Below are positions 24,441 through 62,686 of a DNA stretch of 64,000 bases, one piece after another. The stretch is taken from contig NZ_JACMYD010000005.1 in NCBI RefSeq assembly GCF_014267345.1, positions 62,001-126,000 of the forward strand. The letters are read 5' to 3'. Each line of letters opens with the position of its first letter. Position 1 is the stretch's first letter. The stretch comes from Corynebacterium sp. zg-331. Lineage in GTDB: Bacteria; Actinomycetota; Actinomycetes; Mycobacteriales; Mycobacteriaceae. Position numbers and translations under genes: made by a program. A model generated the notes under the pieces. It was not told the origin of the DNA and did no database searches. It was given only the letters and a program-made list of their open reading frames with translations.

Positions 24441-24465
24441 GGAGAACTAGATAGAGGAGGTGAAG

Positions 24466-24603: not shown

Positions 24604-24606
24604 AGC

Positions 24607-24660: not shown

Positions 24661-24696
24661 ACCCCTCCACCCTAACCCCTCAACGAAAGGACTCCC

Positions 24697-42901: not shown

Positions 42902-43496
42902 GAGAGAAATACGATCGTAGGACGCGCTGACCGATCCACCCGCCGATGAGCGCGGCGAGGAAGAAGAGAACAATCATCGCGATGACCATCGGCGTGGAGA
43001 GAAAGTCGCTGAAGCGCTGGGCCCACTCGGGGTCAGAGTTCTCTGCGTACCGGGTAATGATCTCGTCCCGCATGAACAGCAACGGCAGCAAGGACCCGAT
43101 GGGGTAGATGCCGAAGATACCGTAGCCGAGGATCGTGCGCCCGGCGTCCCGGTAGCCGCCGCTACGGATGATGAGATCGGCGATGAGGCCAAGGAGGAAG
43201 GCAATCGGGACGCCGACAAAGGCGTCGCCGAGCAGGCCGGAGATGAGACTCAGCAGCGTGGCGGCGGTCGTCACGAGACCAAATCCGTGAACGCGCCGGA
43301 TAAACAGCGCGAAGGGGATGCCATTGACGATGATCGCGGCGACGGCTCCGAAGGGCTGCACCTCCGGCCCGAGCACCCCGATGACGTTGAACAGCACGTT
43401 GATCACCGCAAAGATCACCGTGAAGATGCCGACGGTCACGAGGTCACGGCCGGTGATCCCACCGGAGCGGGTGGGGGTGTTCTCAGGAATAGTCAC
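42888..43496 (-). CDS. ECF S component, MptD / Trep_Strep type
   Basis: 202 residues, about six membrane segments, beginning GRDLVTVGIFTVIFAVINVLFNVIG and containing GIPFALFIRRVHGFG and SLISGLLGDAFVGVPIAFLLGLIADLI, the pattern of Trep_Strep/MptD family S components. These are found next to siderophore-type ABC genes in Streptococcus, Enterococcus and Treponema, for example near equibactin. It is the likely substrate-binding subunit. GTG start coupled to the upstream ABC gene by a GTGA overlap. Confidence 0.82.
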   Translation of the reverse strand: MTIPENTPTRSGGITGRDLVTVGIFTVIFAVINVLFNVIGVLGPEVQPFGAVAAIIVNGIPFALFIRRVHGFGLVTTAATLLSLISGLLGDAFVGVPIAFLLGLIADLIIRSGGYRDAGRTILGYGIFGIYPIGSLLPLLFMRDEIITRYAENSDPEWAQRFSDFLSTPMVIAMIVLFFLAALIGGWIGQRVLRSYFSRAGL

Positions 43497-47061: not shown

Positions 47062-47063
47062 GA

Positions 47064-47852
47064 TCATTCCTTTCTTTGGTGGCTGCGGGCAGCGGCGGTA
47101 CGGAGAACGCCGCCGCAGCACATCTGCGCTAGTTCTGGACGATGGATGTGGTGCATGTGGTCCCCGGGCACGATGACGGGTCCGAGGACATCGGGTGACA
47201 AACGTCGCCACCCCGTAGCCGAAGCGGCAGTCAGTTCTTTATCAGCGCATCTCTTAACAATAATGATTGTCGATTGGGTCGCGGCGTTCGCCCATGGAGG
47301 TGGGATGTACGTCTCGATGAGGTGGTAGTCCTCGCGGATCGCCGGAAGGTACAGCGCCGCGAGCTCGGGGTCGGCCAGGGCCCGGGCGGTATCCGGATCA
47401 TTCCGAGACAGTTCCTCGACAATGCCGCTATCCGCCCCCACGTGCATCGCCCCGCCGCCCGCGCGATCCGGGGATACCTGCCCGCTGACGACAAGCACCG
47501 CTCCTCCTCCCCCGCCTGCGCGCTGCCAGGCAAGCAGCGTCTCGTAGGCGAGCACCGCCCCGAGGGAGTGCCCCGCGAGAACGATGGGAAAAGAGGCGAC
47601 CCCCAGTACGGCAGCGATCTCTGCGGCAAGATCGCGCATCGTCTCCGGGTGCGCATCCCCCAGGCGGTAATCGCGGCCGGGATATGTCACGCCGAGCACC
47701 CGAACCTGCGGCCCCGCAATCCGGCCCCACCGTGCGTACTGCCGGGGGCTGCCCCCGGCATGGGGGAAGACCACGATGGTGGGGCGGGAGGCAGGTCCCG
47801 CCACCGATCCGGGAACGGGAACAAGGATGCGGGAGGCGGCGTCGAATCCCAT
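47064..47852 (-). CDS. Type II thioesterase (YbtT-like)
   Basis: 262 residues, alpha/beta hydrolase: VVFPHAGGSPRQYARW at the start, nucleophile Ser in LAGHSLGAVLAYE, acidic residue and catalytic His near the end in VPGDHMHHIHRPELAQ. It removes stalled or wrong acyl groups from the carriers of the NRPS. GGAGGTG precedes the ATG at 47852, which overlaps the previous stop as TGATG. The open frame extending 115 codons further upstream is a shadow of the upstream gene. Confidence 0.9.
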   Translation of the reverse strand: MGFDAASRILVPVPGSVAGPASRPTIVVFPHAGGSPRQYARWGRIAGPQVRVLGVTYPGRDYRLGDAHPETMRDLAAEIAAVLGVASFPIVLAGHSLGAVLAYETLLAWQRAGGGGGAVLVVSGQVSPDRAGGGAMHVGADSGIVEELSRNDPDTARALADPELAALYLPAIREDYHLIETYIPPPWANAATQSTIIIVKRCADKELTAASATGWRRLSPDVLGPVIVPGDHMHHIHRPELAQMCCGGVLRTAAARSHQRKE

Positions 47853-50062
47853 CACCGCACCTCCCCCGGCCGAGCCATCCGCACCGGCGGCACAGATCGG
47901 ATATCCGCAGGAGCCGGGAGGGCGGAGCAAACCCGCAGCCACCACCGCAGCACGAACACCGTGCGCCGGATCCGGCGCGCCGCCTCGCCTCGGTCGCTGC
48001 CTGTGGCCTCGGCGATGAGCCCGGCCACCGCGCGGTGGATGCCCTCCGGCCACACGGTCTCCACGACCTCGCCCCATGTGGGTGGAGCACCATCCCGCCC
48101 CCACACCTGCGCAACCGCGCCGTCCGGGTCGGTGAGCGCCCCACCCACAACGTGCGGGCGCTGCGACCAGCGCGGGAGTGTGCCGATGCCATCCCACGTC
48201 AGCTCGCCATCAGCGGTCTCGACGACCGCCGCCGCCACCGGCTGGGAGTGATTGTCCGGGTCGCTCGGATCCATCCGATGGTCCAGGACGACATCCACGG
48301 GCACCCGACCCCACATCCCCGAGACAAACCACCGGCCCGAACCCGCTCCCGGATTGACGACCACGTCCCCCAGCGGCACGGCACCCAGCGCCTCGGCAAG
48401 CGACAGGCCTGCCCGGTCGAGGACCTGATGGCTCGTGCGCAACAGAACGTGGGTGACGGTCGATCTCCGGGTGAGAGATCGAACCGCGTCGATGAACGCG
48501 CGGCTCGGACCGAGGTGCTCGTAGAAGCCGGTGACCCGGTAGGCCGTGCCGTGATCGCGGGCAAGGGCGGTCAGCGTGGTGACGGTTCCAGGATCCACCG
48601 GCAGCTCCTGGAGCACTGGGATTCCGGCGCGGAGGAAACCGGCGGCGAGGTCGTCCCCCTGCCCGCCGACGATCCCACTGCGAACGGCGACAACCGCCAC
48701 CGCGTCCTCCGGAAGGCTAGGGACATCGGCGGTGCCGCCGGTAGTGAGGTACCGCACACCTAGGTCGCGGGCCAGGTTCCGTCCGCTTCGTCCACCGGCT
48801 CCGACGATCGCCGTCAGCGGTGCCGGAGAGTCGGATTGCGCGAGCGCGTCCGCGTAGCGGGCACCGAAGCCCGCACCGACGACCACGGCTCCTCGGGGTG
48901 TCCCACCGAGGTCGTAGGTGAACGTCACGCCGACGCCATCTGCCCCGGGGTCGGCGCCGATCCATGTGGCCGCGGCTTCGCTTGCGCACGCCCACCGGAC
49001 TCCCACCGGTTCCTTCCCGGCAAGCAGGGTCAACGCAGCGCCCACGGCGAGGTCGCCGGTCGCTCGGTAGCTGTCCGCGCACCGGTAGTCGGCGGTCACG
49101 GTCTCCACGATGTCAGGTCCCGCCGCACAGGCGCGCACAACGATGCGGAAGTACCGCTCCGCTTCCGGCCCGGCCTCCCGGCGGGAGGCAGCGGCGACAT
49201 CATCGATGGTCGCCTCCCCGGCAATGACCCGGCGCAGTTCCCGCACGGTTTCTGGCGCGTCCATGACGTTGATGCCCCGCAGGTACGGGACGCCGATCCC
49301 CCGGGCGACGCCCACGTACTCCTCGTCTAGGTGCACGCTCAGCAACGCGTCGGCCGGGGGATGCCATCCCGCCGCAGATCGGCCGGCGCTGACACCAGAG
49401 GTTGCGTCCTTGACGACGGCGCCGTCCCACCAGACCGCGCCCGGCCAGCCGCCATCAGAGGAGAGCGAGTCCATGTACTCATGCAGCGTCGCCGCCGTCA
49501 GCGGTTGACGCCCACCGACGGCGACCTCGGCCCGCGCGCGAGTCGGATCCGTGACGAGCCGCAGGGCCGCCGCAAGCATCGCCCCCGTCAATCCCGGTTG
49601 TACGCCGGCGCAGAGGAGCACGCTTCGTCCGGCGCGCCGCGCAGCCTCATCGAGCTCAGCGATGATCCGCTCCGAACCCCCGGGATCGACCATATGTAGG
49701 CCGAGGCTCAGCGCCGCGCGTGCCAGGGGGACGGTGATCCTCGATGAGGGCCCCATCCCGTTAATGAGCACGGCCGTGCCGTCTTCGACGAGCTCGGCAC
49801 CGAGAGCAGCAGTGATCTGCGGTTCAGCGTCTGACCCCGGAGTGAGGTCGAGCACCGCCGTCTCGACGGTCGGCCCGCCGGATCGACCCTGGGCGCATGT
49901 CGCAGCGAGATCCGCAAGACGGTCGGCGTTACGCCCGAGGATGACCACGCGATCCCCTTCACCAAGCACACGGATCAGTCGTGCCGCCGCTGCGGAACCG
50001 ACCGCCCCATTCGCGCCGGCCACAAGCACCGTCCGCCGCACCGAGCCCGTCGTCGCCGTCAT
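47852..50062 (-). CDS. Fusion of saccharopine-dehydrogenase-like and thiazolinyl imide reductase domains
   Basis: 736 residues. The N-terminal half (about 1-380) has an NAD(P) fold start VLVAGANGAVGSAAAARLIR and the saccharopine-dehydrogenase-like layout (LCAGVQPGLTGAMLAAALRL, VPYLRGINVMDAPETVRELRRV). The C-terminal half (about 390-700) begins AVVVGAGFGARYADAL and continues VLQELPVDPGTVTTL, like Irp3/YbtU/PchG thiazolinyl imide reductases, which reduce one thiazoline to thiazolidine on the assembly line. The fusion of both on one chain is unusual. ATGA overlap with the NRPS stop, GAAGGAG upstream. Confidence 0.85.
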   Translation of the reverse strand: MTATTGSVRRTVLVAGANGAVGSAAAARLIRVLGEGDRVVILGRNADRLADLAATCAQGRSGGPTVETAVLDLTPGSDAEPQITAALGAELVEDGTAVLINGMGPSSRITVPLARAALSLGLHMVDPGGSERIIAELDEAARRAGRSVLLCAGVQPGLTGAMLAAALRLVTDPTRARAEVAVGGRQPLTAATLHEYMDSLSSDGGWPGAVWWDGAVVKDATSGVSAGRSAAGWHPPADALLSVHLDEEYVGVARGIGVPYLRGINVMDAPETVRELRRVIAGEATIDDVAAASRREAGPEAERYFRIVVRACAAGPDIVETVTADYRCADSYRATGDLAVGAALTLLAGKEPVGVRWACASEAAATWIGADPGADGVGVTFTYDLGGTPRGAVVVGAGFGARYADALAQSDSPAPLTAIVGAGGRSGRNLARDLGVRYLTTGGTADVPSLPEDAVAVVAVRSGIVGGQGDDLAAGFLRAGIPVLQELPVDPGTVTTLTALARDHGTAYRVTGFYEHLGPSRAFIDAVRSLTRRSTVTHVLLRTSHQVLDRAGLSLAEALGAVPLGDVVVNPGAGSGRWFVSGMWGRVPVDVVLDHRMDPSDPDNHSQPVAAAVVETADGELTWDGIGTLPRWSQRPHVVGGALTDPDGAVAQVWGRDGAPPTWGEVVETVWPEGIHRAVAGLIAEATGSDRGEAARRIRRTVFVLRWWLRVCSALPAPADIRSVPPVRMARPGEVR

Positions 50063-53000
50063 CGTTTCTCCTTCGAATCCACCACGCCGGACGCCCACGG
50101 CGCCCGCGCCACCACAAGGTCTGCGACCGCCGGAGCATGCTGGACATCGAGACAGGTGAAATGATCACCATCGACGTCCACGACATCCATCCCGCCCTGG
50201 CACTGATCGGCCCAAAACGCCGTCATATCGTCGCCGAGGTCTGGCAGGAAGGACAGCGGATCCCGCTGCCGCAGGAACGTCACCGGCACGGTCACCAGCG
50301 GTTCGGACCACGCTGCCACCGCCGCGAGGCTGTGGACATACACCTCCCGCAAGGCGTTGAGGGCTTCCCTGGACCACGGCCGCCCTGCCTCGGTGCGGAG
50401 GAACCTGTCGAGCCGCGCACCGGATGTCTGCGGCACACGGGCTATCTGCGTGCGCAGGTCATCATCGGCGTACCGGTAAACAACCTCAGCAGTAATGTCC
50501 TCGTGGCCGTCTTTCCGGGCCGCCCGCAGCGCGAGGCCGAGGCTTTCCTCATCGAGGTCAATGCCCATGTCCTGCGGCCTGCACCCCATGAGTCGGGCAA
50601 AGGAAAAGTCCAGGAGGATCTCGTCGCGCACGGTGAAAGGGATCCGGTAGGAGCTCATGACCGTCGCGGTGGCCGCCACCCCGCACGCGGCGAGGCGGTC
50701 GGCGATCCCGGCGGCGAGAAGCCCGCCCATGCAGTACCCAACGACGTGCACGCGCCGCGCCTGCGTCTCCAAGACGCTCACAGCGTACCGCTCGGCGAGA
50801 TCGTGGAATAGCTCCTCCGGCGGGGTCGTGAGGTAGTTATCCCCGGCGGAGCGTTCGATGCCCAACACTGGTTTCACGCCGCGCTCTGCAAGCTCCCGGA
50901 GGAGTGCCGCATACGGTCCGATGCCACCGGAGCCGTCGTGAACCACAACCGTAAGATCGGTGCTACCGGCCCGCCCAAGCAGCCAGGTGAGGCGAGGGCC
51001 GGAATGCGGAGAGGACGACTCCGTCACCTCGATAGTCGGCATCCGGTCGTCGGGTGGGGTGAGACCGAGCACGCGACGGCAGCCGTCGATCGTCGGGTAG
51101 GCGACAATGGCGCGCAGCGTCTCGTCCCAGCTCGGCAAGTCCTCCCTACCGATGGCCCGACGCATCTGGCCGATGCACCGCGCAAGCAACAAGCTGTCGC
51201 CCCCGAGGGCGTGAAAGTCGGCGTCCCCGGGCAACGGCTCGGACGGGTCAAGATTAAGAACCTCCCGCCAAGCGTCGGCCACCGGATCCGCTGCTGGGGG
51301 AACGGTTCTGGGGCGGGTGGACGGACGCGCCTCCACCAGGCGAGCAACGGCGGCGCGATCCCGCTTTCCGTTCGCGGTCAACGGCAACGCGGTCACCACC
51401 CCGATCCGCCGAGGCCGCATCTGCGCGGGCAACAGCTCAGCGACGGCGGCCCGCACACGCGCGGCGTCGAAATCCTCCCCGGATGTCGCCTCGGGTTTTC
51501 TCACGATGAAGACGTGCTGTGCCCCAAGTTCTAGCACCGACCCCGGCTCCGGGAGCACCACGACGGACTCCATCGGCGAGGCCTCGATCGCCTCCCGCCA
51601 CTGTTCTAAAGTGAAAAATGGCGAGCCGGTACCCAGGCGGGCATCCGTCGTGTCACCGAGCCCCTCCTTGAACTCCATCGACGCCATGAGCGGCGCGTTC
51701 GTCGCCGTGGAGTCAATGACCACGAGCAGCCCACCCGGTGCGAGCATCCGCTCAACCCGTCTGAGCGCATCGTCGATGTTCCGGGCGTTGTGCAACACGT
51801 TCGCGCACAACACCACGTCTACTGACCCCGGCTGTATGCCTTGCTCCTCAGGTGCGATGTTGATATCAAACAACGCGGTGCACACCTGCGGCCACTCTCG
51901 CTCCGCAGCGTCGGTGAAATACCGGGATACGTCCGTAAATAAGTAATCCACCCCGGCCTCCGGCAATTCCGCGATGACGTCGGCGGTCGTCCCGCCGACC
52001 CCCGCGCCGATCTCCAGAACCCGGCACCGTCGCCCGGCACCGATGAGGGTTCGCGCATGATGCCCGACCGCCGCTGCGCACACGCCATTGAGGTACGAGG
52101 CCAGCAGATTCTCCCCGTAGGAGGCGCGGGCAACGCCCATGTCCCCGGAGGGAAAGAGAAGGGAGAGCGGATCGACGCTACCGCTTAGCAATCCCGGCAA
52201 CGCTTCCAGGCTGGATCGCAGGTAGTCCAGCTGACGGCGGCCGTAGCCCAGCCGTTCGTCGAGAAGATAGATCTCCGCCCAACGGGCATCGGCAGCGCCA
52301 CTCCCGGCATCCACCACGGACACCCGCCCCTCAGAGCACCGCAGCCGGCCCGCGAGTTCCAACTGGTCAATCCATCGGTTCATGAGTGCAGCGCGCGCCC
52401 GGGCACCCGTGCCCGCAACGATCTCGTCCCGGGTCGCGCTCTCGTCCGGGGAAGCCGAGGTCACGCGCGCGATCTGCGCGGTCATAGCGTCCAGGGCAGC
52501 GGCAGTCACAAGGTCGTGGATCCGGCGGAAATCACGGCACTGACCGTCATCAGGCTCCTGTGCCCGGGCCATGATCGCGGCCCTCAGCGCCCGATCCATA
52601 TCCACGGTGGCCTCGGGCACAACGACGGCAACGAGTTCCCGTCGATCTCCTTCCGCCGTCACCACGGCGAGGGCATCGGCAACCCCATCGACCGCTCGCA
52701 GCCCGGCCTCGACCTCGCCGAGTTCGACGCGGTACCCATGGATCTTCGCCTGCTCATCATCGACCCGACCGCAGAACTCGATCTCGCCGTTTGGCAGGTA
52801 CCGGCCGACATCACCGGTGCGATAGCACCTCTCCCCGGTAGCGAGGTGGCGGCCAAACGCGACCGCCGTGCGCTCCGGATCGCCAAGATAACCCTCGACC
52901 ACCCCATCACCGGCGATGACGATCTCACCGCGCTGACCGACGGCCGCGCGCCCACCGTCCCGGTCAAGCACCCACACGGCCTGGTGGCCGAGCGCGCGAC

Positions 53001-56000
53001 CGTAGGGCACCGAACGATGGACCGCGTCATCCTCGGGGACGCAGCGATGGACGATCGACCAGATGGAGCCCTCGGTTGCACCGCCCAGAGCATCGACGAC
53101 GACCTCCGGGACGAGGGCGCGCACGCGGGCGGGCTGGTTGATCGGCACCCGGTCGCCAGAAACAAGGACCGTGCGCAGTGACGGCAGCGCCTCACCGACG
53201 TCATCGAGGTGATCGAGCAGGATCGTGAGCTGCGCAGGCACGGAGTTCCACAGCGTGACGCCGTGCCGATGGATGTCCCGCGTCCACGTCTCCGGGTCCG
53301 GCACCGCCCCACACGAGGGCACTACCACGGCACCGCCGGCCCCAAGCACGCCGAAGACATTGAATATCGCGAGGTCGAACGAGGGACGGGAAACCGCGAG
53401 CACGCGATCCGCGGGCACAAGCTCCAGGCGCTTCGCCATCTCGTCGAGCGTCGTGCACACCTGCCGATGGGTCACGCACACCCCTTTCGGCGTACCAGTC
53501 GAGCCGGAGGTAAAAATGACGTACGCCAGATCGTCCGCCGACGGCGGATCGGCGAGCGCCTGGCACACCGCTTCTCGCCACGCTACGTCCTCTCCTCCCG
53601 ACCGCATGGGAGCGCAGGCCGCCCGTAGCGTGGCGCCATCGACAACCGGCACTTCTTCCGCGTACGCCTGCCGCACCGCGTCCAGCGCGGCCCGATGGCG
53701 GGACTCCGGCCACTCCAGATCGAGCGGCACGAAGGCACGCCCCGTGAGCAGCGCGGCGAACTGCGCCGCGATCTGTCCCTCCCCGGGAGGTAGGAGGACC
53801 GCTACCGGAGCACAACCCCCGGGAAGCACCCCGGCGATCCGCACCGCGGCCTCGCACAGCTCGGCCCGAGACACCGTGCGATCCCCCTGAATGACCGCCG
53901 GAGCCGCCGGAGCATCGAGCGCCGCGCGCAGGAACCGGCCGTGGAGTAGTCGCCCGTCTGTCGACCGGATCCGCACCACCGGCTCCGGTGCACGAGTCGC
54001 GGGAACAGCCACGATTCCCACGGCGAGCTGATCGAGGATGCCTCGTACCTCGGCGAAGAGGGCGTCCAGCACCGCCGGGTGGAAACCACCGTCGCGGGAG
54101 TCCCAGTCCATCGTGACCCCCTCCCCGTCCGGGGACAGCTGCACATCCAGGAGCACCTGCGGGGTCTTGCTGATCGCCATGCCGGGCACAGCCCGGAGCA
54201 GTCGCGGGGGTTCAACGGCCGTCACCCCCACGGTCGAGGTGAATACCACCGGGATGCGGCCGCGCTCCTCGCCACCGGTGCGGCGCAGGTCACGCACGAC
54301 CTGCACGCCCGAGTAGGTCGGATGATCGAGGGCGTCAAAGAGCCGACGCTGGAGGACCTGCGCCGTCAGCCCGAGGTCTCGGCCCAGCGGGAGATCGAGA
54401 ACGACGGTCGAGGTAAAGTCACCGACGATCCGCCCGATGTCCGCAGCGGACGGGTCGTTTTCGCCAACAGGCGCGCGATCCACCGTCGTGAGGGTGATCA
54501 AGGCGGAGACAAGATCGCGCTCTGCGCCCGCGTCCTCCCCTTCCACCCGGTGATGCTCGTACCCGCCGAGCTCGATGTCCGCATGCCGCCGCGCAGCCGT
54601 AGCGAACGCCGCGAGCACCAGCCCGGAGGGCGTGACGGTCAATCGGGCGGCCGTCTCGCACAGGCCACGCCAGGCGTCCACGTTCAGGTGGTGGCTGCGG
54701 CGCGTCGTGCCACCGAGCCCCATCGCGTCTGGGTCCGGGGAGAACATCAGCGCTGGCGGCAGGGCGTCCAACCGATCCCGCCACCAGCGGGTGTCCCGGT
54801 CTCGCGCCGCGCGCCCCTCCGGTGTCGCCGCATGCACAGCGCGGGCCTCCAAACACTGCCGGAAGGTCGCCGCCGGGGCATTGAGGGATTCCCGGGGATG
54901 CCGCAGGCAATAATCGAGGTCTCGGACAAGGGAGCGAATGCCCACGTAGTCGGTGACGATGAGATCCACCGACAGATGCAGCACCGGGTCACCGGCTCCG
55001 ATGGTGAGCGCAAGCTCGACCATCGGAGCCTCGCCGACAGAAAAATTCCGTTCCTGGAGATCAGCGCGGACGATGGCCCGCGCGGTCTCCGGGTCCGATT
55101 CCCCTGCAGTGACATCGATCACGCGCACATGAGCCCCGACGGTGCGATCGATGCGCTGACGACCCTCGCGATCGACGAGCACCCGCAGCATCTCGTGGGC
55201 GCCAACAACCCGTCGCCAGGCTCGACGCACCGCTTCGACCGGATCCGCCGCCGAGGCCGCGTCCATTTTGTCAAGAGGCAACACAAACTCGCTGTACCCC
55301 TGGCAGGCGACCCCGCCGTCGTCGTAGGCTGTCGTGCGGCCCATGAGGTAGCTGGCCTGCACGTCGGTGAGGTCGAACCAATCCTCCGTAGATTCCGCCT
55401 GCGCATCCGTCGCGCCAACCACCGCGTCCCGAAAGTCGCCGAAGTCGGGAGTCGTCAGGAGCATGCGGAGTTCGGCGTCGATCCCGCGCGCTCGCAAGGC
55501 GCTGATGCAGCGCGTGGCGGTAAGCGAATCACCCCCGGAGCGAAAGAAATTCGTGTCATCCGTGATCTGATCAAGGCCCAGAACGTCCGCCCAGACCTCG
55601 GCGAGTGTGGAGTCGCATGCCCGCCGCGCGTTTTCCCGGCCTTCGTCCCCGGCCGGGAGCCTGGTGAGCTCCGCGACGGTCCTCCGGATCACCCGGTGCG
55701 CGATCTCGGCGGGCATGACCTCGACGAGGTAATCGGCGGTGAGGTGCAGGCCATCGCGGTCATCGGCAACCTGGAGATCAAGGACGACCTGCGGCGTCGT
55801 CGAAGAGGCCGCGACTTGAGTGCCGAAGCTGCGCTCGCGCAATGACCGCAACGCACCGGGGGTCACCGCCGAGAGACCAAGACCACACGTGAATACGACC
55901 GGGAAGAGCCCAGCCGCGGGGTCGCCGCTGGTCTGCACGGCGCGGGCGGCGAGACGTAGGGCATCCTGGGCCGGGTCGTCCGCCCCGGCCAGCGCGGCCT

Positions 56001-59000
56001 GCCCCGAGCGTTCCGCGATCGCGCGATCCTCCGCGCGCAGACCGTGCACGCCGATGAGACTGAGACTGGTGAAGTCCCCGAGCACTCGCTCTATGCCCGG
56101 CGCGGAGAGGTCGCGATCAAAGCGGGTGAGATTGATGGTGAGACCGTCCTCGCCGGTCTCCGCGGCGAGGACGCGACCAAACGCGGCGAGAACCCCAGCC
56201 GCCGGGGTGACGCGGCGGGTAGCAAAGCCCTCTCGGATGCGCTCCCACGTCGCAGCGTCGATGTCCGCGCTAACCCGGGCCATCGATGTATCTGTGAGTC
56301 CGATGAGCGTCTGGCGATCGGGGACAAACGGTGCCGGAGGGAGCTTCGCCAACACGGAATCCAAGCGTCCGGCCAGGTCGTCGGGGGTAAGCATCCGCCC
56401 CTGCCACGGCACGGGGGCCACAGGATCGGTAAGCCATGGCCGGTTAACAAGGTACGCGGCGATGCCGGTGGTGGTGTTCTCGCCCACCGCAGACCCAGCG
56501 TAGGAATCCGAAATCTCGTCCATGAGCAGCATCATTGACGCGCCATCGAGCAGGAGGTTGTTCATCGACACCGCAACGGTCGCCCCGTCCACTCCGGTGG
56601 ACACGCGCACGGCGAGCGGTCCCTCCACGCGTGGATCGGGCATGCGATCGCGCAGCTCCGCAGCGGCGTCCCCGGTCACGGCCCACACGCCTGCGAATCG
56701 TTCTCCTGCGGTCCGGGCATCCATGACTCTGGCAACAGGTACCCCCTTCAGCCCATCGGCCACAATTGTGCGAAGAACTGGGTGACGGCGAACGACCGTG
56801 CGCACAGCCGACTCCAGACGTGTGGTGTCCACGACGGGTGCGTGGAAGATGAATAAGCAGCGGGCGGGTGCACCCCCGAGGAGCTGTCCGTCTTCTTGTC
56901 CGGCAAGATAGGCCTGCTGAACTCGGGTGAGCGGGTGCGTACCAACGGCGGGGTCCGCGACGGCATCTGCACCGACCACCCGGCGGCGCAACTCACCGAA
57001 AGTCGGATTGTTGAAGACGTCCACGGCGCGCAGGCCGGTCACCCCTGCCTCCCGCAGGTCCGCGAGCACTCGCGTCGCGGTGAGGGAGTCCCCGCCAGCG
57101 GCGAAAAAGTCCATCTCGTCGGGGATGTTGCCGCCGTTATCCGGAAGCCCGGGCAGGTGCCTGCGCCAGCTCGCCGCAAGCACCTCGGCGAGATCAGACC
57201 CATCATCCGCTGCGGGTGCCACGATCGCAGGAGTCATGCTCATCCCGGTGTCCGCGGCCACCGCTCTCAGGACGACGCTGTGCCCATCCTCCGCTTCGAG
57301 GTAGCGGACGCGCAGGCCGGCCTCCGACAGCAGCGACGACCACCCGGCGGCAGAGGACAGCCCTACCCGATCAAGCACCGCCGGATTCACCAGCGCCGCA
57401 GAGATAAGCGTCGCCGCAGTCGGCCGTTCGGCCTCGATGACGTGAACCTCCGCCCCCGGCGCCAACGGCACCTCCGCCAGCCCAGCGCGCAGGCGCGGAT
57501 CCCGGTGCAAGGTGCCGCAGGCCACGACAATATCCGCCGGGGCGGGCACATCGACGACATCGGCGACGCAGGTCCGTCCGTCGACCGCCGCGATGTCTGC
57601 GACGAGCTCGTCCGGTCCCACAACAATCCAGCTGTCTGCCTCGCGCCCCTGGACGGATTCGCCGAGCGCGACCCCGTATCCGAGTTCCACGACAACCACC
57701 CGATCCCCACGCCCGGCGCGGCGAAGCATACTCTCGTCCAGGACATCCAGCGCCCGCGCGACCGTCGGCTCCGCCGCCGCGAGAGCCCGTGGTGATAGCA
57801 CCGGGTGATCGAGGATCCTGAAACGCCGCGCGCGAGCCCGGACGATATCCACGAGCAGGTGTACCTCCTGAGCGGACCAGGCGACGGGGGCGTCGGCTAG
57901 CCCGGTCGCCTCCGGTCCCTCGGCGACAAACTTCCGCCACGCCGCGACGACGGGCACAGCCCACGGCACAAGATCGGCGTCAGCCGTGCCATTGAGACGC
58001 GCCACCACGCTTCCGAGCAGGGTAGAAACGGTGCCGGTCTCGGTAGGAGAGACAGCACCACCGAGCCGAGCGACCATCTCGCGGAACATCTCGTCCACCG
58101 CGACCGGGTCCAGCACGCCGACGGGCATGTCCCACCGGATCTCCACGGTCGCGTCGTCGATAGTCGCGAGCTGACAGTCGATGAGCACCCCCGGTGTCCG
58201 CGTCAGCTGCCACTCCAGGACCACGTCCCGGGTGGCGGGGGCGAGGGCAGCATCATACCCCACCACTGAAGTGAACACTGCTGGATAACGGCCGGTGCGG
58301 CCGTCGCTTGCGGCGTGCACGCCGTCTCCCGCGATATCCGCAGAGGCGTTCTCGGTGAGCATGGCGGCGAGAGCGTCGCTGGTAGCGGCGGGATCAGCCG
58401 CCGCCGGGCATGCGCACACCCCCAGGCGGGAAAAGGTGCCCAGGACTTCGCGGCCGTCGCCGGTGTCCGGCCGGTGGATCAGGGGAACGACGACGCCCAC
58501 CTCCGCTAAGCCCGACCGCTTCGCGAGGAGAGACCCGAACTCCGAAAGGACCACCGCCGATAGAGCCGCCCCGGTGCGGGCGGCAGCGCGCTGGAGAGTG
58601 GCACGGGGAATGCGCGCCCGGACGCTGCCAAAGGCGGCTAGAGGGGCGTCCATACCGGCGGAAGCGGGATCCTGACCATCAGCGACGGGGAGCACCGGTG
58701 GCTCTGGGGCCGCCGTTGGGAATCCGGCGGCGCCAGCTGCCCTCCCGCCACCGGCGAGGGCGTGGCAGTGCTGGGCAAACATCTTGGCAGACGGATCCAC
58801 CGTCACCACTTCGTCCGGGTTCTGCCCCGACAGCGCAGCGGTGAGAGCACCGACGACGACGGCGAGGCTGCGCCCATCGAGGGCCAGGTAGTCGATGAGC
58901 ACGCCGACCTCGCGCGCCCCCTCCCCGGGGAGAACGAGTTCCAGCGGCACCTTCGGTGCGACAGACGAGAGATACGCGCGAAGATCCGCGAACCGGTCGA

Positions 59001-59067
59001 GGACGGTGACCCACAGGGCGTCGCGGGGGGCGGTGACGCGCTGGGCATCGTCACCGTCACGGATCAC
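50059..59067 (-). CDS. Siderophore NRPS, main fragment: (Cy)-MT-like-PCP-Cy-PCP-Cy-A(MT)-PCP-TE
   Basis: 3002 residues continuing the broken upstream frames. Approximate domains: end of Cy (1-340, motif DYLALDGRS); short methyltransferase-like (380-600, VELGYGVALG); PCP (625-700, GGDSLT); Cy (710-1140, NNLLLDGAS with Asn for the first Asp); PCP (1155-1220, GGDSLT); Cy (1230-1690, DLIVTDYVG); A (1705-2150 and 2530-2580) with VIFTSGSTGTPKGV and GGATEG; inserted C-methyltransferase (2155-2520, LEIGAGVGG); PCP (2590-2665, GGDSLL); TE (2690-3002) with GYCMGG, a Cys nucleophile. FDLAIFN and LWNS in the A domain suit cysteine. It probably builds and releases a polythiazoline siderophore. The annotated GTG is likely not a real start; see the frameshift near 59085. 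Confidence 0.88.
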   Translation of the reverse strand: MIRDGDDAQRVTAPRDALWVTVLDRFADLRAYLSSVAPKVPLELVLPGEGAREVGVLIDYLALDGRSLAVVVGALTAALSGQNPDEVVTVDPSAKMFAQHCHALAGGGRAAGAAGFPTAAPEPPVLPVADGQDPASAGMDAPLAAFGSVRARIPRATLQRAAARTGAALSAVVLSEFGSLLAKRSGLAEVGVVVPLIHRPDTGDGREVLGTFSRLGVCACPAAADPAATSDALAAMLTENASADIAGDGVHAASDGRTGRYPAVFTSVVGYDAALAPATRDVVLEWQLTRTPGVLIDCQLATIDDATVEIRWDMPVGVLDPVAVDEMFREMVARLGGAVSPTETGTVSTLLGSVVARLNGTADADLVPWAVPVVAAWRKFVAEGPEATGLADAPVAWSAQEVHLLVDIVRARARRFRILDHPVLSPRALAAAEPTVARALDVLDESMLRRAGRGDRVVVVELGYGVALGESVQGREADSWIVVGPDELVADIAAVDGRTCVADVVDVPAPADIVVACGTLHRDPRLRAGLAEVPLAPGAEVHVIEAERPTAATLISAALVNPAVLDRVGLSSAAGWSSLLSEAGLRVRYLEAEDGHSVVLRAVAADTGMSMTPAIVAPAADDGSDLAEVLAASWRRHLPGLPDNGGNIPDEMDFFAAGGDSLTATRVLADLREAGVTGLRAVDVFNNPTFGELRRRVVGADAVADPAVGTHPLTRVQQAYLAGQEDGQLLGGAPARCLFIFHAPVVDTTRLESAVRTVVRRHPVLRTIVADGLKGVPVARVMDARTAGERFAGVWAVTGDAAAELRDRMPDPRVEGPLAVRVSTGVDGATVAVSMNNLLLDGASMMLLMDEISDSYAGSAVGENTTTGIAAYLVNRPWLTDPVAPVPWQGRMLTPDDLAGRLDSVLAKLPPAPFVPDRQTLIGLTDTSMARVSADIDAATWERIREGFATRRVTPAAGVLAAFGRVLAAETGEDGLTINLTRFDRDLSAPGIERVLGDFTSLSLIGVHGLRAEDRAIAERSGQAALAGADDPAQDALRLAARAVQTSGDPAAGLFPVVFTCGLGLSAVTPGALRSLRERSFGTQVAASSTTPQVVLDLQVADDRDGLHLTADYLVEVMPAEIAHRVIRRTVAELTRLPAGDEGRENARRACDSTLAEVWADVLGLDQITDDTNFFRSGGDSLTATRCISALRARGIDAELRMLLTTPDFGDFRDAVVGATDAQAESTEDWFDLTDVQASYLMGRTTAYDDGGVACQGYSEFVLPLDKMDAASAADPVEAVRRAWRRVVGAHEMLRVLVDREGRQRIDRTVGAHVRVIDVTAGESDPETARAIVRADLQERNFSVGEAPMVELALTIGAGDPVLHLSVDLIVTDYVGIRSLVRDLDYCLRHPRESLNAPAATFRQCLEARAVHAATPEGRAARDRDTRWWRDRLDALPPALMFSPDPDAMGLGGTTRRSHHLNVDAWRGLCETAARLTVTPSGLVLAAFATAARRHADIELGGYEHHRVEGEDAGAERDLVSALITLTTVDRAPVGENDPSAADIGRIVGDFTSTVVLDLPLGRDLGLTAQVLQRRLFDALDHPTYSGVQVVRDLRRTGGEERGRIPVVFTSTVGVTAVEPPRLLRAVPGMAISKTPQVLLDVQLSPDGEGVTMDWDSRDGGFHPAVLDALFAEVRGILDQLAVGIVAVPATRAPEPVVRIRSTDGRLLHGRFLRAALDAPAAPAVIQGDRTVSRAELCEAAVRIAGVLPGGCAPVAVLLPPGEGQIAAQFAALLTGRAFVPLDLEWPESRHRAALDAVRQAYAEEVPVVDGATLRAACAPMRSGGEDVAWREAVCQALADPPSADDLAYVIFTSGSTGTPKGVCVTHRQVCTTLDEMAKRLELVPADRVLAVSRPSFDLAIFNVFGVLGAGGAVVVPSCGAVPDPETWTRDIHRHGVTLWNSVPAQLTILLDHLDDVGEALPSLRTVLVSGDRVPINQPARVRALVPEVVVDALGGATEGSIWSIVHRCVPEDDAVHRSVPYGRALGHQAVWVLDRDGGRAAVGQRGEIVIAGDGVVEGYLGDPERTAVAFGRHLATGERCYRTGDVGRYLPNGEIEFCGRVDDEQAKIHGYRVELGEVEAGLRAVDGVADALAVVTAEGDRRELVAVVVPEATVDMDRALRAAIMARAQEPDDGQCRDFRRIHDLVTAAALDAMTAQIARVTSASPDESATRDEIVAGTGARARAALMNRWIDQLELAGRLRCSEGRVSVVDAGSGAADARWAEIYLLDERLGYGRRQLDYLRSSLEALPGLLSGSVDPLSLLFPSGDMGVARASYGENLLASYLNGVCAAAVGHHARTLIGAGRRCRVLEIGAGVGGTTADVIAELPEAGVDYLFTDVSRYFTDAAEREWPQVCTALFDINIAPEEQGIQPGSVDVVLCANVLHNARNIDDALRRVERMLAPGGLLVVIDSTATNAPLMASMEFKEGLGDTTDARLGTGSPFFTLEQWREAIEASPMESVVVLPEPGSVLELGAQHVFIVRKPEATSGEDFDAARVRAAVAELLPAQMRPRRIGVVTALPLTANGKRDRAAVARLVEARPSTRPRTVPPAADPVADAWREVLNLDPSEPLPGDADFHALGGDSLLLARCIGQMRRAIGREDLPSWDETLRAIVAYPTIDGCRRVLGLTPPDDRMPTIEVTESSSPHSGPRLTWLLGRAGSTDLTVVVHDGSGGIGPYAALLRELAERGVKPVLGIERSAGDNYLTTPPEELFHDLAERYAVSVLETQARRVHVVGYCMGGLLAAGIADRLAACGVAATATVMSSYRIPFTVRDEILLDFSFARLMGCRPQDMGIDLDEESLGLALRAARKDGHEDITAEVVYRYADDDLRTQIARVPQTSGARLDRFLRTEAGRPWSREALNALREVYVHSLAAVAAWSEPLVTVPVTFLRQRDPLSFLPDLGDDMTAFWADQCQGGMDVVDVDGDHFTCLDVQHAPAVADLVVARAPWASGVVDSKEKR

Positions 59068-60341
59068 CCGCAGCCGGACCAGCGGGTAACGATGCCCTCC
59101 GCTGCGCGCCTGACCTGTGTGGCCGTAAAACCGGCCCCGGGGTCCTCCCCGCTCCTTGCGTCGCGAAGACCGAGGATCACCGAGTACGCGGTGGCTGCGC
59201 GAACCGTGCCCCGAATACCGTCGGTTCCCAGTGCATAGGCCCGCTGGAGTGGGGTGAGGGGGAACCGGGCACCGGCGTCGACGGCCCCGGCGCAGGTGGC
59301 CGGGGCGGCGGAGGCACCCGTTTCGTCAGGCTCGCATCGACCCATCGCATCGACGGCGGCGATGAACCTGTCTAACGTCGGGTTCCCGAACAGGTCTGCG
59401 ACCGTCACCCGATAACCGCGCGCCCGCAGGTGCGCGCACACGGCGGTCGCGCCGACGCTGTCTCCGCCCAGAGCGAAGAAGTTGGCGTCCGGCCCGTGGA
59501 GCTCCATAGCCGCCGCGTCAAGCACAGCAGCCCAGGCCTCCGCCACATCAGCGCCAGTCCCTCCCGGAACCACACCACCCCCAGGTTCCCCATCCAGGAC
59601 CCGCGCGGCCCACGCGCGGTCGATCTTTCCGTTCGCGGTGAGTTGTAGCTCCGACACAACGATCACGTCACGCGGCACCATGAAACCCGGCACACACGCG
59701 GCAAGGCGGTCCCGCACCAGGTCTCCGAACTGCGTCTCGGGCTGTGCGTCCTCCATCTTTTCGGCTACGACGAGCGCACGCAATGCCGTGTTCCCCGAAG
59801 CGGGCAGAACCACAGCCGCCTCGACACCATCGATGGCCCGGAGGTGGTGCTCGATGTCCCCGAGTTCCACCCGGTGTCCACGGATCTTCACCTGATTGTC
59901 TTGCCTGCCAACGAAGAACAGCAGATCATCATCCCCCCAGTAACCGTGGTCACCGGTGCGATACCAGCGGGAGCCGTCGGCGTCGGTGACGAACCTGTCA
60001 GCGGTGAGATCCGCCCGGCCGAGGTACTCCGAGGCTAGGCTCGCTCCCCCAATCCACAACTCCCCCACGGCGCCACTCGGTACCTCACGCCCGTCTGCAT
60101 CCATGACCCGGTACGCCTGGCCCGGGAGGGGACGACCATAGGGCACAGACGGCCACGCCGGATCAAGATCCCCGGGGCCGTCGATAACGTGTTCATTCGA
60201 CCAGATCCCGCTCTCGGTGGCTCCCCCCCATGGCGACGACGCGCGCCCCCACGGCGTGCCCATCCCCCGAAACCGCGCGATCTTCGGTGATAGCGCGGAT
60301 ACGCGCGGGGAGCGTCGGCGATACCCAATCTCCGGAAACAA
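59064..60341 (-). pseudogene. NRPS fragment: end of A1, PCP1, start of Cy2
   Basis: From the GGATES motif (about 60228) this frame carries the rest of the first adenylation domain (YRTGDHGYWG, GHRVELGDIEHHL, LTANGKIDR). A carrier protein with the phosphopantetheine site FFALGGDSVGAT and the start of the second cyclisation domain (FPLTPLQRAYALG) follow, and it breaks off after EGIVTR at about 59085. The heterocyclisation domain then continues one frame over in the large downstream fragment (YPLVRLRV). The first 40 codons of the open frame upstream of GGATES are out of frame and not real. Confidence 0.8.
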
Positions 60342-60960
60342 GGATCAGCCGTAAAGGCAGCTCCGGCCCGTCTTCGGCGGCGACGGTGAGCATGTCCGCG
60401 AGGGCTGGGGCGCTGTTCCACACGGTCACGCGATGCCGACGGATGAGTTCGCACCAGGTAAAGGCGTCGCGCCGGTCGCTCTCCGCGATACACACGACGG
60501 TGCCGCCCGCACCGAGCAACCCGAAGACGTCGAAGACGCTGAGGTCGAAGTCCAGGGAGGATACGGCGAGAACGCTGTCCTCCGGTCCAATACCGTGGCG
60601 CTCGACGACGGCGGCGACGGTGTTTGTCGCCGCGCGGTGGGTCATGACGACGCCCTTCGGCGTGCCCGTCGATCCGGATGTGAAGATAACGTATGCGCGA
60701 TCGTCACCATCGACGGCGCGCGGCAGGTCGGCCGGGGCGGGTTTCTGCCCATCGTCGTACACCGCCGGGTCCACCTTCTCGATGACCACCACCGGCTGCG
60801 CAACCTCCCTGACGGCGCGCACGCGTTCATCGGGGTGTCGATGCTCACGGGCAGGTACGCCGCCCCGAGGTACATAACGGCGAGCACCGCCGCGATCTGG
60901 TCGCGCCCCTTCGGCAGCCGGATCAACACCAGGTCGCCCGGAGTGACCTGGTCTGCCCAT
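60193..60960 (-). pseudogene. NRPS fragment: core of the first adenylation domain
   Basis: The meaningful part runs from about 60832 to 60229: DERVRAVREVAQPVVVIEKV, then YVIFTSGSTGTPKGVVMTH, LDFDLSVFDVFGLLGAGG, VTVWNSAPALADML and LILVSGDWVS. It joins to the upstream frame by regaining one base in a short G run (60832-60835 on the plus strand) and to the downstream frame by losing one in a run of seven (60223-60229). FDLSVFD and VWNS agree with Cys-activating domains of the pyochelin/yersiniabactin type. Confidence 0.75.
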
Positions 60961-62528
60961 CCCACCGCGAGCCGCAGCGCTGCACGGTGGAGTTCAGCAT
61001 AGGTAAGGTTCTCGCCGCGGGCGGGATCGACGACAGCCGTGGCGCCCGGACGCGCCTCGACCTGCCGCAGCCACGCCCCGTGGAGGGTCGGCGTCTCGAC
61101 GGCGGCATCCACCGACGGCATGGAGTTCACAACAGCACGCCGGTCGGCAACGGCACGGGATAGCCGCACAATCTCGTCGATCGGTCGCCCACCACATCGA
61201 CGAAGCTCCCCCACCGAACCCGACCCCACCGCAGCGAGGCGGTCCAGTGCGTCGGCCACCGTCCCGAGCAGCTCTGGGCCAAAGGCTCCGGGGAAGGCAC
61301 CGTCGCGCACGTCGAGGGCCACGCAGATCTCCTCCGGGACGAGGTGGAGAATCTGCAGATCAACGAGAACCTGCGGGGTCACCGATCCCGTCGCCGTCAG
61401 CCGCCCAAACACCTCCAGCACCTCGGTGGTGAGCAGCACCTCCTCCCCACCGCACGTGAGCACGAACGGCAGGCTCCCGCCATGTCCCTCGCCACGGTAG
61501 AGCAGCGCGCGCATTTCTTCCGTGGAATCCAGCCCGGCACGAATACGGCGGCGCAACTCGGCGCTTGCCTCTAGCGCGGCCTCGCCGAGGGTTCGACCTA
61601 TCGCCGACGGCGGGCGAACGGCCCACGTTCGCGTCCGGTCTAGAACGTCGTCGGGGGTACGACGGGCGCTGAGGCCGGGGACGATAATGGTGAGATCCTC
61701 GTTTCCGCACCACAGGCCGAGGGCATGGCGGTACACCGCGAGCAGGAGCCCCGAACGGGTGGTTCCCATCGCGTCGGCGACCGCACCGATGGCCGCCCAG
61801 GACGCCGGATCGAGCCTGTGGGCGTGCCTGGTCACGGTTCGTTCCGGGGCGCCGACGAGCGGAATAGTCGGACCGGCGGGGAGGGGATCCGGCTGCGGCA
61901 TGGCGTCGTCGATCTTCGATGCCTTCGTCGTGGCCGTCCCCTCGCGAGCGGCGATGTCTGCGAAGGTCACCCACGGCCGGGTCACGTCGGCGGCGCGGTA
62001 CGCAGCGGCCAATTCCCGGATGATGATGCCCACGCCTACGAGGTCTGCGACCGCAAGGGAGATCCCGATGTGAAGAATCCCCAGCTCACGGCCGTCGTCG
62101 GCATGCCAGTGCAGGATATCCAGCCACCCAGACTCCCCGAGCTCGTGATCGGCATGTCTGCCGAGGATCTCTCGACGGTGATCGACCAGGTACGCAGCGA
62201 GATCCTCGTCCGTGCCCGCGCCCGTGAACTCCGTGATGGTCAGCGGCAGACGAGCCTCCCTGCCGTTATCGACGTGTCTGCCATCGACGATGGTGGAGCG
62301 CAGCACCGGGTGGCGACGCAAGGCGGCAACAGCGGAGCGCATCCGATCAGGGTCCACGGGTACACCGGTGAACTCGAAGAGGGCGAGGCAGTCGACGCCG
62401 CCGTGGAGCTGATCCCCCGAGCGGCCAGAGAGGTACGCCCGTTGCGTGCCGGTCAGCGACCTTGTTGTCTCCCTGGGCGTCGCATAATCGCTGGTAGTGC
62501 GACCGTGCGTGACTCGTTGCGGCTTCAA
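60642..62528 (-). CDS. NRPS N-terminal fragment: Cy1 and start of A1
   Basis: The operon's first gene starts at TTG 62528, 5 bases after GGAGGG. Residues about 25-460 form a heterocyclisation domain (LTGTQRAYLSG, ALRRHPVLRSTIV, ISLAVADLVGV where the first motif Asp is Ser, PFVLTCGG, PQVLVDLQI). From about 490 an adenylation domain begins (RPGATAVVDPARGENLTYAE, PVSIDTP), then the frame is lost at about 60832. Residues after that are out of frame. No aryl carrier domain precedes Cy1, so an ArCP must act in trans. Confidence 0.82.
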   Translation of the reverse strand: MKPQRVTHGRTTSDYATPRETTRSLTGTQRAYLSGRSGDQLHGGVDCLALFEFTGVPVDPDRMRSAVAALRRHPVLRSTIVDGRHVDNGREARLPLTITEFTGAGTDEDLAAYLVDHRREILGRHADHELGESGWLDILHWHADDGRELGILHIGISLAVADLVGVGIIIRELAAAYRAADVTRPWVTFADIAAREGTATTKASKIDDAMPQPDPLPAGPTIPLVGAPERTVTRHAHRLDPASWAAIGAVADAMGTTRSGLLLAVYRHALGLWCGNEDLTIIVPGLSARRTPDDVLDRTRTWAVRPPSAIGRTLGEAALEASAELRRRIRAGLDSTEEMRALLYRGEGHGGSLPFVLTCGGEEVLLTTEVLEVFGRLTATGSVTPQVLVDLQILHLVPEEICVALDVRDGAFPGAFGPELLGTVADALDRLAAVGSGSVGELRRCGGRPIDEIVRLSRAVADRRAVVNSMPSVDAAVETPTLHGAWLRQVEARPGATAVVDPARGENLTYAELHRAALRLAVGWADQVTPGDLVLIRLPKGRDQIAAVLAVMYLGAAYLPVSIDTPMNACAPSGRLRSRWWSSRRWTRRCTTMGRNPPRPTCRAPSMVTIAHTLSSHPDRRARRRASS

Positions 62529-62545: not shown

Positions 62546-62564
62546 TAAGGTATGGCTCACATAA
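62546..62564 (-). promoter_or_regulatory. Candidate DtxR box at the siderophore promoter
   Basis: The 19 bases TAAGGTATGGCTCACATAA match 14 positions of the DtxR consensus TTAGGTTAGSCTAACCTAA. They lie 18 bases upstream of the NRPS start and touch the candidate -10, the usual place for iron-dependent repression. Confidence 0.5.
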
Positions 62565-62660: not shown

Positions 62661-62686
62661 AAAAGTTCAAATAGTCGAACTCTTTT
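62661..62686. promoter_or_regulatory. Inverted repeat between divergent siderophore genes
   Basis: AAAAGTTC, an 8-base spacer, then GAACTCTTTT, an 8-bp dyad with one extra base, about 72 bases before the MFS gene. It could be the operator for that gene. TATACG follows at about 62696 as a weak -10. The gap 62529-62757 contains no gene. Confidence 0.4.

What the first reader, a model, noticed from the sequence alone, without database searches (positions are those of the whole stretch)
50059..62528. Thiazoline siderophore NRPS with four cyclisation domains but only two adenylation domains
Read across the frame breaks the line is Cy-A-PCP-Cy-MT-like-PCP-Cy-PCP-Cy-A(MT)-PCP-TE. Two carriers have no A domain of their own, so one Cys-type A domain must load several carriers, as the single A domain of yersiniabactin HMWP2 does. 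Unlike yersiniabactin no polyketide module is present, and unlike pyochelin there are four heterocyclisation domains. The order does not match a system I can name, so the product, probably an aryl-capped chain of three or four (methyl)thiazoline/thiazolidine rings, may be new.
Basis: partly seen in the sequence, partly recalled or inferred. Interest (0 to 1): 0.85.

Follow-up and report, generated by a model that had tools for sequence, protein, structure and literature searches.

The report
Four-cyclase thiazoline metallophore line, frame-broken
This Corynebacterium gene cluster encodes a giant enzyme with four ring-forming domains, interrupted by three frame breaks in this genome but open in four related genomes, that likely builds an undescribed metal-scavenging molecule of up to four sulfur-containing rings for taking up iron or zinc.

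Summary
On the minus strand at 62528-50059 the line reads Cy1-A1-PCP1-Cy2-(MT-like)-PCP2-Cy3-PCP3-Cy4-A2(MT)-PCP4-TE, with three frame breaks in its first third. It is one open frame of 4,050-4,950 codons in four other Corynebacterium genomes. All four Cy keep the cyclodehydration Thr, Asp and Gln; both A domains carry cysteine-type codes. A Gordonia homolog has four Cy and four carriers but one A domain, supporting one A domain loading several carriers.

New here: the line has no aryl carrier; the genome holds unlinked genes of 2,3-dihydroxybenzoate type and a free-standing carrier. The thioesterase has Cys in place of Ser, as reported for coelibactin and sorangibactin. A fused dehydrogenase-like/thiazolinyl-imide-reductase protein, type II thioesterase, ABC pair and ECF transporter follow, an equibactin-like set. 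A DtxR-like box precedes the window copy; zinc-type (Zur) boxes precede three of six orthologs, not the window's.

Verdict: a new variant of the yersiniabactin/equibactin/coelibactin kind, probably an iron/zinc metallophore with up to four Cys-derived rings. Product, starter and metal are inferred. The window's own copy may not be functional.

The parts
62546..62564 (.). DtxR-like operator just upstream of the synthetase start
   Evidence: 14/19 to the recalled DtxR consensus, 0 of 300 shuffles of the 330-bp upstream region reach it; in the whole window one other place, 26498 in a repeat, also scores 14/19
60642..62528 (-). synthetase piece 1: Cy1 (about 62470-61180) and N-terminal part of A1
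   Evidence: AMP-binding 488-566; Cy1 aligns to PchE E 3e-17, EpoB, HMWP2
60193..60960 (-). synthetase piece 2: middle of A1 (most of the Cys-type pocket)
   Evidence: AMP-binding E 1e-38
59064..60341 (-). synthetase piece 3: C-terminal part of A1, PCP1, first residues of Cy2
   Evidence: (PP-binding 265-330)
50059..59067 (-). synthetase piece 4 (3002 aa): rest of Cy2, MT-like domain, PCP2, Cy3, PCP3, Cy4, A2 with embedded MT, PCP4, TE
57226..57963 (-). MT-like domain of module 2, degenerate SAM-binding glycine motif, homologous to the A2-embedded MT
51538..52500 (-). methyltransferase embedded in A2 with intact EIGAGVGG motif
50062..51000 (-). terminal thioesterase with GYCMGG (Cys where EntF has Ser)
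47852..50098 (-). 748-aa fusion: dehydrogenase-like N half + thiazolinyl imide reductase C half
   Evidence: TIGR01761 E 5e-39, 134.8 bits, below its cut-off of 188.8; aligns to YbtU/Irp3 4gmg E 4e-25; C. oculi ortholog carries saccharopine-dehydrogenase PF03435
47064..48197 (-). type II thioesterase (GHSLG); the Thioesterase domain is residues 140-360 of this frame, so the real start lies inside it
   Evidence: PF00975 E 4e-31
45277..47211 (-). ABC transporter, fused permease-ATPase, first of a pair
43493..45310 (-). ABC transporter, fused permease-ATPase, second of a pair
42888..43496 (-). ECF transporter S component, MptD/Trep_Strep family
   Evidence: PF09605 E 1e-45, TIGR02185 above cut-off
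42221..42973 (-). ECF transporter T component (CbiQ family)
   Evidence: PF02361 E 5e-10
40724..42196 (-). ECF transporter double ATPase
   Evidence: two ABC_tran stretches
62758..64000 (+). divergent MFS exporter (EmrB type, below that model's cut-off; runs past the window end); its start lies beside the synthetase in the window and the other five loci
   Evidence: window; protein or start of coding DNA in the other five:

Best explanation
The locus is an operon for a likely thiazoline metallophore whose synthetase reads Cy1-A1-PCP1-Cy2-(MT-like)-PCP2-Cy3-PCP3-Cy4-A2(MT)-PCP4-TE, broken by three frame breaks in this genome and open in four relatives, and it is predicted to make an aryl-capped chain of up to four cysteine-derived rings. 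Shown by sequence: domain order, Cys-type A codes, the Thr-Asp-Gln cyclodehydration set in all four Cy, Cys in the TE active site, the reductase fusion and the transporters. Inferred mechanism: a carrier off the line, loaded with 2,3-dihydroxybenzoate, likely donates to Cy1; A1 and A2 would load Cys on all four carriers, two of them without an A domain of their own; each Cy would condense and cyclise one Cys; the fused reductase would turn at least one thiazoline into a thiazolidine; the A2-embedded MT would methylate at the last module; and the Cys thioesterase would release the chain, perhaps onto an added thiol amino acid or as a thiolactone, as proposed for sorangibactin. The divergent MFS pump is the likely exporter, and the ABC pair with the ECF system the likely importer of the metal complex. 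Control is likely by iron (DtxR) here and by iron and zinc in several relatives.
For: Domain calls and order. Open orthologs. Same layout in metagenomic and Gordonia homologs, and one A for four carriers in P0013. T, D and Q in all four Cy in the five orthologs compared: (roles of this set from passages of PMC9547227). Cys-TE; essential Cys and essential saccharopine-dehydrogenase protein in sorangibactin: PMC10127202, passages and section 2.3. Equibactin accessory set (saccharopine-dehydrogenase EqbM, reductase EqbF, YbtPQ-like EqbKL, importer EqbHIJ): PMC3672683. DHB-type genes; aryl ligase (E <= 1e-120) in 6 of 6 genomes with the full fusion reductase against 63 of 242 in the genus. Regulation. 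Even purifying selection on all pieces.
Against: The window copy has three breaks and may make nothing. Cy1 has Ser for the first Asp of DxxxxDxxS in five of five orthologs, Cy3 has Asn or Ser there, and Cy2 has Asn in two of five; Cy2 and Cy3 lack, in five of five, the Arg that pairs with that Asp. So fewer than four rings is possible. No aryl carrier is on the line. The DHB genes are unlinked to this operon and may serve only the second NRPS on contig C17. The aryl ligase stays below the DHB-ligase cut-off (580 of 724 bits). No Zur box is found before the window, C. oculi or G200 copies, and no DtxR-like box before C. oculi or G200; a 14/19 DtxR score also occurs once elsewhere in the window. 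The reductase model scores below its cut-off. The module-2 MT-like model was of low confidence (pLDDT 43). The 6-of-6 co-occurrence includes close relatives and is weak.
Confidence: 0.68

Rival explanations
1. Cy1 does not condense: the chain starts with free cysteine on PCP1, and the product is a non-aryl chain of Cys plus up to three rings, closer to a zinc or copper chelator than a siderophore.
For: No aryl carrier on the line; first Asp of the Cy1 core motif lost, Gly for Ser at its end, in five of five orthologs, and Ser in two and Ala in one distant homolog at that Asp (P0009, P0010, P0013); no aryl genes in the operon; zinc-type boxes in three orthologs.
Against: Cy1 is as conserved as Cy2-4 (C. 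oculi vs G108: 57.8 against 47.4, 54.4 and 59.8%) and keeps Thr, Asp and Gln; all six genomes with the full fusion reductase encode an aryl-AMP ligase and a carrier off the line.
Confidence: 0.2
2. The locus is an ordinary equibactin or yersiniabactin-type siderophore cluster with one extra inactive Cy domain, making a three-ring aryl product for iron only.
For: Equibactin-like accessory genes; DtxR-like box; irregular Cy1 and Cy3 core motifs.
Against: Four Cy and four carriers are kept from Corynebacterium to Gordonia; TE with Cys; no aryl carrier on the line; a separate second A domain with MT; Zur-type boxes in three of six orthologs.
Confidence: 0.2
3. The window copy is a dead gene, and only the transport half of the operon is in use here to take up a relative's product.
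For: Three frame breaks within 1.8 kb, while the reductase, type II TE and two ABC frames align over their length to C. oculi; a genome (G056) that keeps the ABC pair and an MptD-like frame but only the first 626 residues of a synthetase and a reductase fragment.
Against: dN/dS is uniform and low in all four pieces, so the breaks are recent or sequence errors; one lies in a run of seven G; no reads were available.
Confidence: 0.4

Closest known systems
Equibactin (eqb) of Streptococcus equi, with the Clostridium kluyveri relative
   Same: Cys-loading NRPS with Cy domains and carriers lacking A domains, saccharopine-dehydrogenase EqbM, thiazoline reductase EqbF, type II TE, YbtPQ-like ABC pair, three-gene importer, DtxR-like regulator (PMC3672683: abstract, passages and section 6)
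   Different: Equibactin: one A, three Cy, four carriers including an aryl carrier on the line, salicylate ligase in the cluster, TE Ser replaced by Ala. Here: two A, four Cy, no aryl carrier, TE Ser replaced by Cys, EqbM- and EqbF-like parts fused. Equibactin sequences were not compared here
Sorangibactin and coelibactin
   Same: TE with an essential Cys nucleophile (Cys also stated for coelibactin), saccharopine-dehydrogenase protein, trans-acting thiazolinyl imine reductase (PMC10127202, passages and section 2.3). Coelibactin is called a putative zincophore (abstract); its Zur control is recalled
   Different: Seven- plus five-domain line starting from a salicylate-loaded carrier, Ser-derived oxazole made with a P450, separate methyltransferases; no P450 or salicylate synthase in this operon. 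Exact domain order was in a figure not held, and sequences were not compared
Yersiniabactin HMWP2/HMWP1
   Same: Cy1 and Cy4 align to HMWP2/Irp2 Cy domains; YbtU/Irp3-like reductase; Cys loading of A-less carriers (recalled)
   Different: No polyketide module, no on-line aryl carrier, four Cy, two A
Pyochelin PchE/PchF
   Same: Cy1, Cy4 and both A domains align to PchE; last module Cy-A(MT)-PCP-TE is PchF-like (PchF order recalled)
   Different: PchE aryl carrier and inserted epimerase absent; two more Cy modules
C. diphtheriae sidAB/cdtPQ
   Same: Yersiniabactin-like locus of the genus under both DtxR and Zur, product unknown (PMC6711530, passages)
   Different: sidB is described as a polyketide synthase; sequences were not compared here

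Membership tests
Thiazoline NRPS metallophore synthetases (general kind) | Cy domains with Thr-Asp cyclodehydration pair | tested here: met
   4 of 4 Cy in 5 of 5 orthologs compared; solved Cy relatives for Cy1 and Cy4
Thiazoline NRPS metallophore synthetases (general kind) | Cys-specific A domain | tested here: met
   codes DLFNLSMIWK (A1, C. oculi) and DLFNLSLIWK (A2), read by a recalled pocket mapping; last Lys assumed; no substrate predictor was run
Thiazoline NRPS metallophore synthetases (general kind) | thiazolinyl imide reductase | tested here: met
   TIGR01761 E 5e-39 but 134.8 bits, below its 188.8 cut-off; Irp3 E 4e-25
Equibactin | aryl carrier at the N-terminus of the line | tested here: not met
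   orthologs and P0009/P0010 begin directly with Cy1
Equibactin | single A domain, three Cy | tested here: not met
   two A, four Cy
Equibactin | saccharopine-dehydrogenase protein and reductase | tested here: met
   fused here; PF03435 on the C. oculi ortholog; the window's N half itself has no PF03435 hit at 1e-3
Equibactin | salicylate-AMP ligase in the cluster | tested here: not met
   none among the operon's proteins; DHB-type ligase on another contig
Coelibactin/sorangibactin | terminal TE with Cys nucleophile | tested here: met
   GYCMGG in 5 of 5 orthologs, against EntF GYSLGG
Coelibactin/sorangibactin | cytochrome P450 and salicylate synthase in the cluster | tested here: not met
   none among the operon's proteins; elsewhere in the genome 3 of 4 chorismate enzymes were scanned and score 88, 105 and 123 bits on TIGR03494, cut-off 325
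Coelibactin/sorangibactin | Zur control | tested here: inconclusive
   box in 3 of 6 orthologous promoters, not in the window's
Coelibactin/sorangibactin | thiolactone or homocysteine end | not testable with these tools
   needs chemistry
Yersiniabactin | polyketide synthase module | tested here: not met
   no PKS domain in the line or operon
Pyochelin | inserted epimerase in the first A domain | tested here: not met
   A1 of C. oculi aligns through to its end without insert and is followed by PCP1

The most novel reading that the evidence does not exclude
An actinobacterial line builds a dual zinc/iron metallophore with four consecutive Cys-derived rings, started from a 2,3-dihydroxybenzoyl carrier in trans and released as a thiolactone by a Cys thioesterase; one A domain can feed all four carriers, and the lineage shows A domains being lost one at a time, leaving their inserted methyltransferases behind.
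Probability: 0.22. Interest if true: 0.72.

Novelty: new variant of a known kind. Interest (0 to 1): 0.5.

Why it matters
If right, it adds a four-cyclase architecture to the thiazoline metallophores and gives several Corynebacterium species a candidate zinc/iron scavenger. Its relatives form a natural series (two A domains here, one in Gordonia) in which loading of A-less carriers in trans can be tested directly. It also offers a second branch in which to study Cys thioesterases, which in sorangibactin are tied to an unusual thiolactone ending.

Tried and rejected
Rejected as unlikely: salicylate made in this genome as the starter (of four chorismate enzymes, two score as isochorismate synthases and one as PabB; the fourth, on C21, was not scanned; ligase motifs are of the DHB kind, Ser and Val, in 6 of 6 genomes with the full reductase, while G056 has Ser and Leu; motif meaning recalled and in part in a passage). 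Rejected: Cy1 as a decaying remnant, since it is as conserved as the others. Rejected: the frame breaks as old decay. Led nowhere: AlphaFold model of the module-2 MT-like domain (pLDDT 43), so no fold search was run; PDB search with that domain; first motif script for the ligases printed nothing and was replaced. Repeats inside the gene: two short families only. Literature: phrases for four heterocyclisation/cyclisation/Cy domains or four contiguous/consecutive thiazolines gave 0 papers in the held library. Most subscription papers are not in it, and antiSMASH and MIBiG were not available, so 'not in print' is claimed only for these searches. Papers opened: PMC3672683 and PMC10127202 (abstract, passages, one section each), PMC12971057, PMC6711530, PMC12188740, PMC9547227 (passages only).

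Results against the reading: window, C. oculi and G200 lack a Zur box, and C. oculi and G200 also lack a DtxR-like box; a second 14/19 DtxR score lies at 26498 in a repeat; irregular Cy1-Cy3 core motifs. The Zur pattern was composed after I had seen the G098 and G108 sites, so its hits there are not independent; the AztD hits and the rarity of the pattern are. Both AztD proteins score below that model's cut-off (351 and 340 of 400 bits). Dropped or partial rows: P0003 and P0008 are truncated; by motif pattern 8 of 11 close homologs (P0002-P0011, P0013) show four Cy Asp motifs, P0003, P0007 and P0008 three. The NRPS homolog search listed 120 of 1518 hits and scored a capped candidate set; the fusion search likewise scored a capped set and its 14 hits include the window's own protein and fragments. 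G056 is not counted among the six orthologs because its reductase match is a fragment. G039, G150 and G151 have weak reductase matches, and of these only G039 was read.


Full report
What is there. The window lies in a 2.16-Mb genome (contig C20) that I take as Corynebacterium because its reductase is 72-76% identical to that of C. oculi. On the minus strand, four overlapping frames (62528-60642, 60960-60193, 60341-59064, 59067-50059) carry one very large NRPS. Behind it follow a 748-aa fusion protein, a type II thioesterase, two fused permease-ATPase ABC proteins, and an ECF transporter of S (MptD/Trep_Strep), T and double-ATPase components. A divergent EmrB-type MFS pump starts at 62758. As far as the ORF lists show, synthetase, fusion protein, thioesterase and ABC pair follow one another in the other five loci too.

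Domain order. Cy1 and Cy4 align to solved Cy domains of PchE, EpoB and HMWP2/Irp2, Cy4 also to BmdB. All four Cy keep the Thr of the FTS-type motif and the Asp and Gln of the LDxQ-type motif in the window and four open orthologs. Passages of PMC9547227 name this Asp-Thr dyad and nearby Gln as affecting cyclodehydration, and describe the DxxxxD aspartates as structural, the first pairing with an Arg. Here only Cy4 keeps both that Asp and that Arg in all five. Cy1 has Ser for the Asp (Arg kept); Cy2 has Asp or Asn but Thr, Ile or Ala for the Arg; Cy3 has Asn or Ser, and Gln, Gly or Glu for the Arg. Cy1 is nevertheless as conserved as the rest (C. oculi vs G108: 57.8, 47.4, 54.4, 59.8% for Cy1-4), so it does not look like a remnant.

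A domains. By a recalled pocket mapping, A1 (read in C. oculi, because the window's A1 is broken) gives DLFNLSMIWK and A2 gives DLFNLSLIWK, both Cys-type. Two carriers have no A domain in their module. The Gordonia hydrophobica homolog P0013 (3526 aa) has the same four Cy and four carriers but only one A motif, with Cy4 running straight into the MT. This is the best evidence that one A domain feeds several carriers, though a separate A domain elsewhere in that genome was not excluded. The MT-like domain of module 2 is homologous to the MT inside A2 but its glycine-rich motif is degenerate, as if an A domain had been lost around it. Its structure prediction was of low confidence.

Release. The thioesterase reads GYCMGG in 5 of 5 orthologs, aligned to GYSLGG of EntF. 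Sorangibactin, the product of a coelibactin-like cluster, needs such a Cys and ends in a homocysteine thiolactone, and its saccharopine-dehydrogenase protein and thiazolinyl imine reductase are both needed (PMC10127202, passages and section 2.3). The 748-aa fusion here joins those two functions: its C half matches thiazolinyl imide reductase (below the cut-off) and YbtU/Irp3, and its C. oculi ortholog carries PF03435. A capped search of the large protein set gave 14 proteins for the fusion, the window's own and fragments included. In equibactin the same two functions are separate proteins, EqbM and EqbF.

Starter. Neither the orthologs nor P0009/P0010 have a carrier before Cy1. In the host genome an isochorismatase, an isochorismate synthase and a free-standing 79-aa carrier sit together on contig C22; a second isochorismate synthase is on C12 and an aryl-AMP ligase on C18. 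Carriers off the line also occur in the other five genomes; in G098 and G108 they are fused to the isochorismatase. The ligase is closest to the DHB-AMP ligase model but below its cut-off (580 of 724 bits). Its pocket motifs are of the DHB kind in 6 of 6 genomes with the full reductase; G056 differs at one position. Such a ligase (E <= 1e-120) is found in 63 of 242 Corynebacterium genomes and in 6 of 6 with the full fusion reductase, but these six are partly close relatives. A second NRPS on C17 with a binding-protein gene nearby could be the real user of DHB. The DHB cap is therefore likely, not shown.

Metal. A pattern of the Zur type, composed after seeing the G098 and G108 sites, occurs with at most one mismatch at six places in six genomes and never in the reversed control. 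Two places are those synthetase promoters, two lie upstream of AztD-like zinc chaperones (351 and 340 bits, below that model's cut-off of 400), and two lie elsewhere. Scored against the AztD boxes, G098 and G108 (17/19) and G021/C. bovis (16/19) have a match that 0 of 300 shuffles reach; the window, C. oculi and G200 do not. DtxR-like boxes are found in the window (14/19, 0 of 300), G021 (13/19, 0 of 300), G098 (14/19, 1 of 300) and G108 (14/19, 2 of 300), not in C. oculi or G200; one further 14/19 score lies in the window at 26498. The C. diphtheriae sidAB cluster, of unknown product, is likewise under both regulators (PMC6711530, passages). So 'metallophore' fits better than 'siderophore'.

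State of the window copy. Three breaks fall within about 1.8 kb. dN/dS against C. oculi and C. bovis is low and even over all four pieces (dS 0.57-0.82, dN 0.10-0.18), as between open copies (0.72 and 0.15). One break lies in a run of seven G. The breaks are therefore recent or errors of sequence. Open copies exist in four other genomes.

Placement. In content the operon is equibactin-like, in release chemistry coelibactin/sorangibactin-like, and in its last module pyochelin-like (the last recalled); it fails defining features of each (see the membership table). I file it as a new variant of the thiazoline NRPS metallophores. Four Cy domains in one metallophore line were not found in the searches listed, which covered only the held open-access library.

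Noticed in passing
window about 8577-26700, perhaps 5-33 kb: A prophage fills much of the left part of the window: SPP1-type portal, terminase large subunit, Gp37-like protein, dUTPase.
   Followed up: partly
window 26157-26672 (repeats 26446-26547): A pentapeptide-repeat protein beside the prophage dUTPase, with 15-base tandem repeats in its gene.
   Followed up: no
L005 5970-18831 (G000:C17): A second NRPS region: 2171-aa protein with two Condensation, AMP-binding, two carrier and a thioesterase domain, a stand-alone A domain, a siderophore-interacting FAD protein and a periplasmic-binding-type lipoprotein, perhaps a DHB-based siderophore.
   Followed up: partly
L054/L053 (G056:C1:1680-1710 kb): G056 keeps the MFS, ABC pair and an MptD-like frame of this operon, but the synthetase is cut to a 1013-aa frame whose first 626 residues are 91% identical to the full-length homolog P0006, with a reductase fragment: a deletion that leaves mainly transport.
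   Followed up: partly
window 62665-62680: Inverted repeat GTTC-N8-GAAC beside the divergent MFS gene; similar repeats stand at this place in C. bovis and G098. Possible operator of the pump.
   Followed up: no
L069 1439-2728 and L072 1537-2769: AztD-like zinc chaperone genes with a Zur-type box, possible reference sites for the genus.
   Followed up: yes
L051/L052 (G039:C1 from 2093.5 kb): A different Corynebacterium thiazoline-type cluster with separate dehydrogenase-like and reductase proteins, an aryl ligase and an NRPS that does start with a carrier-like motif.
   Followed up: partly
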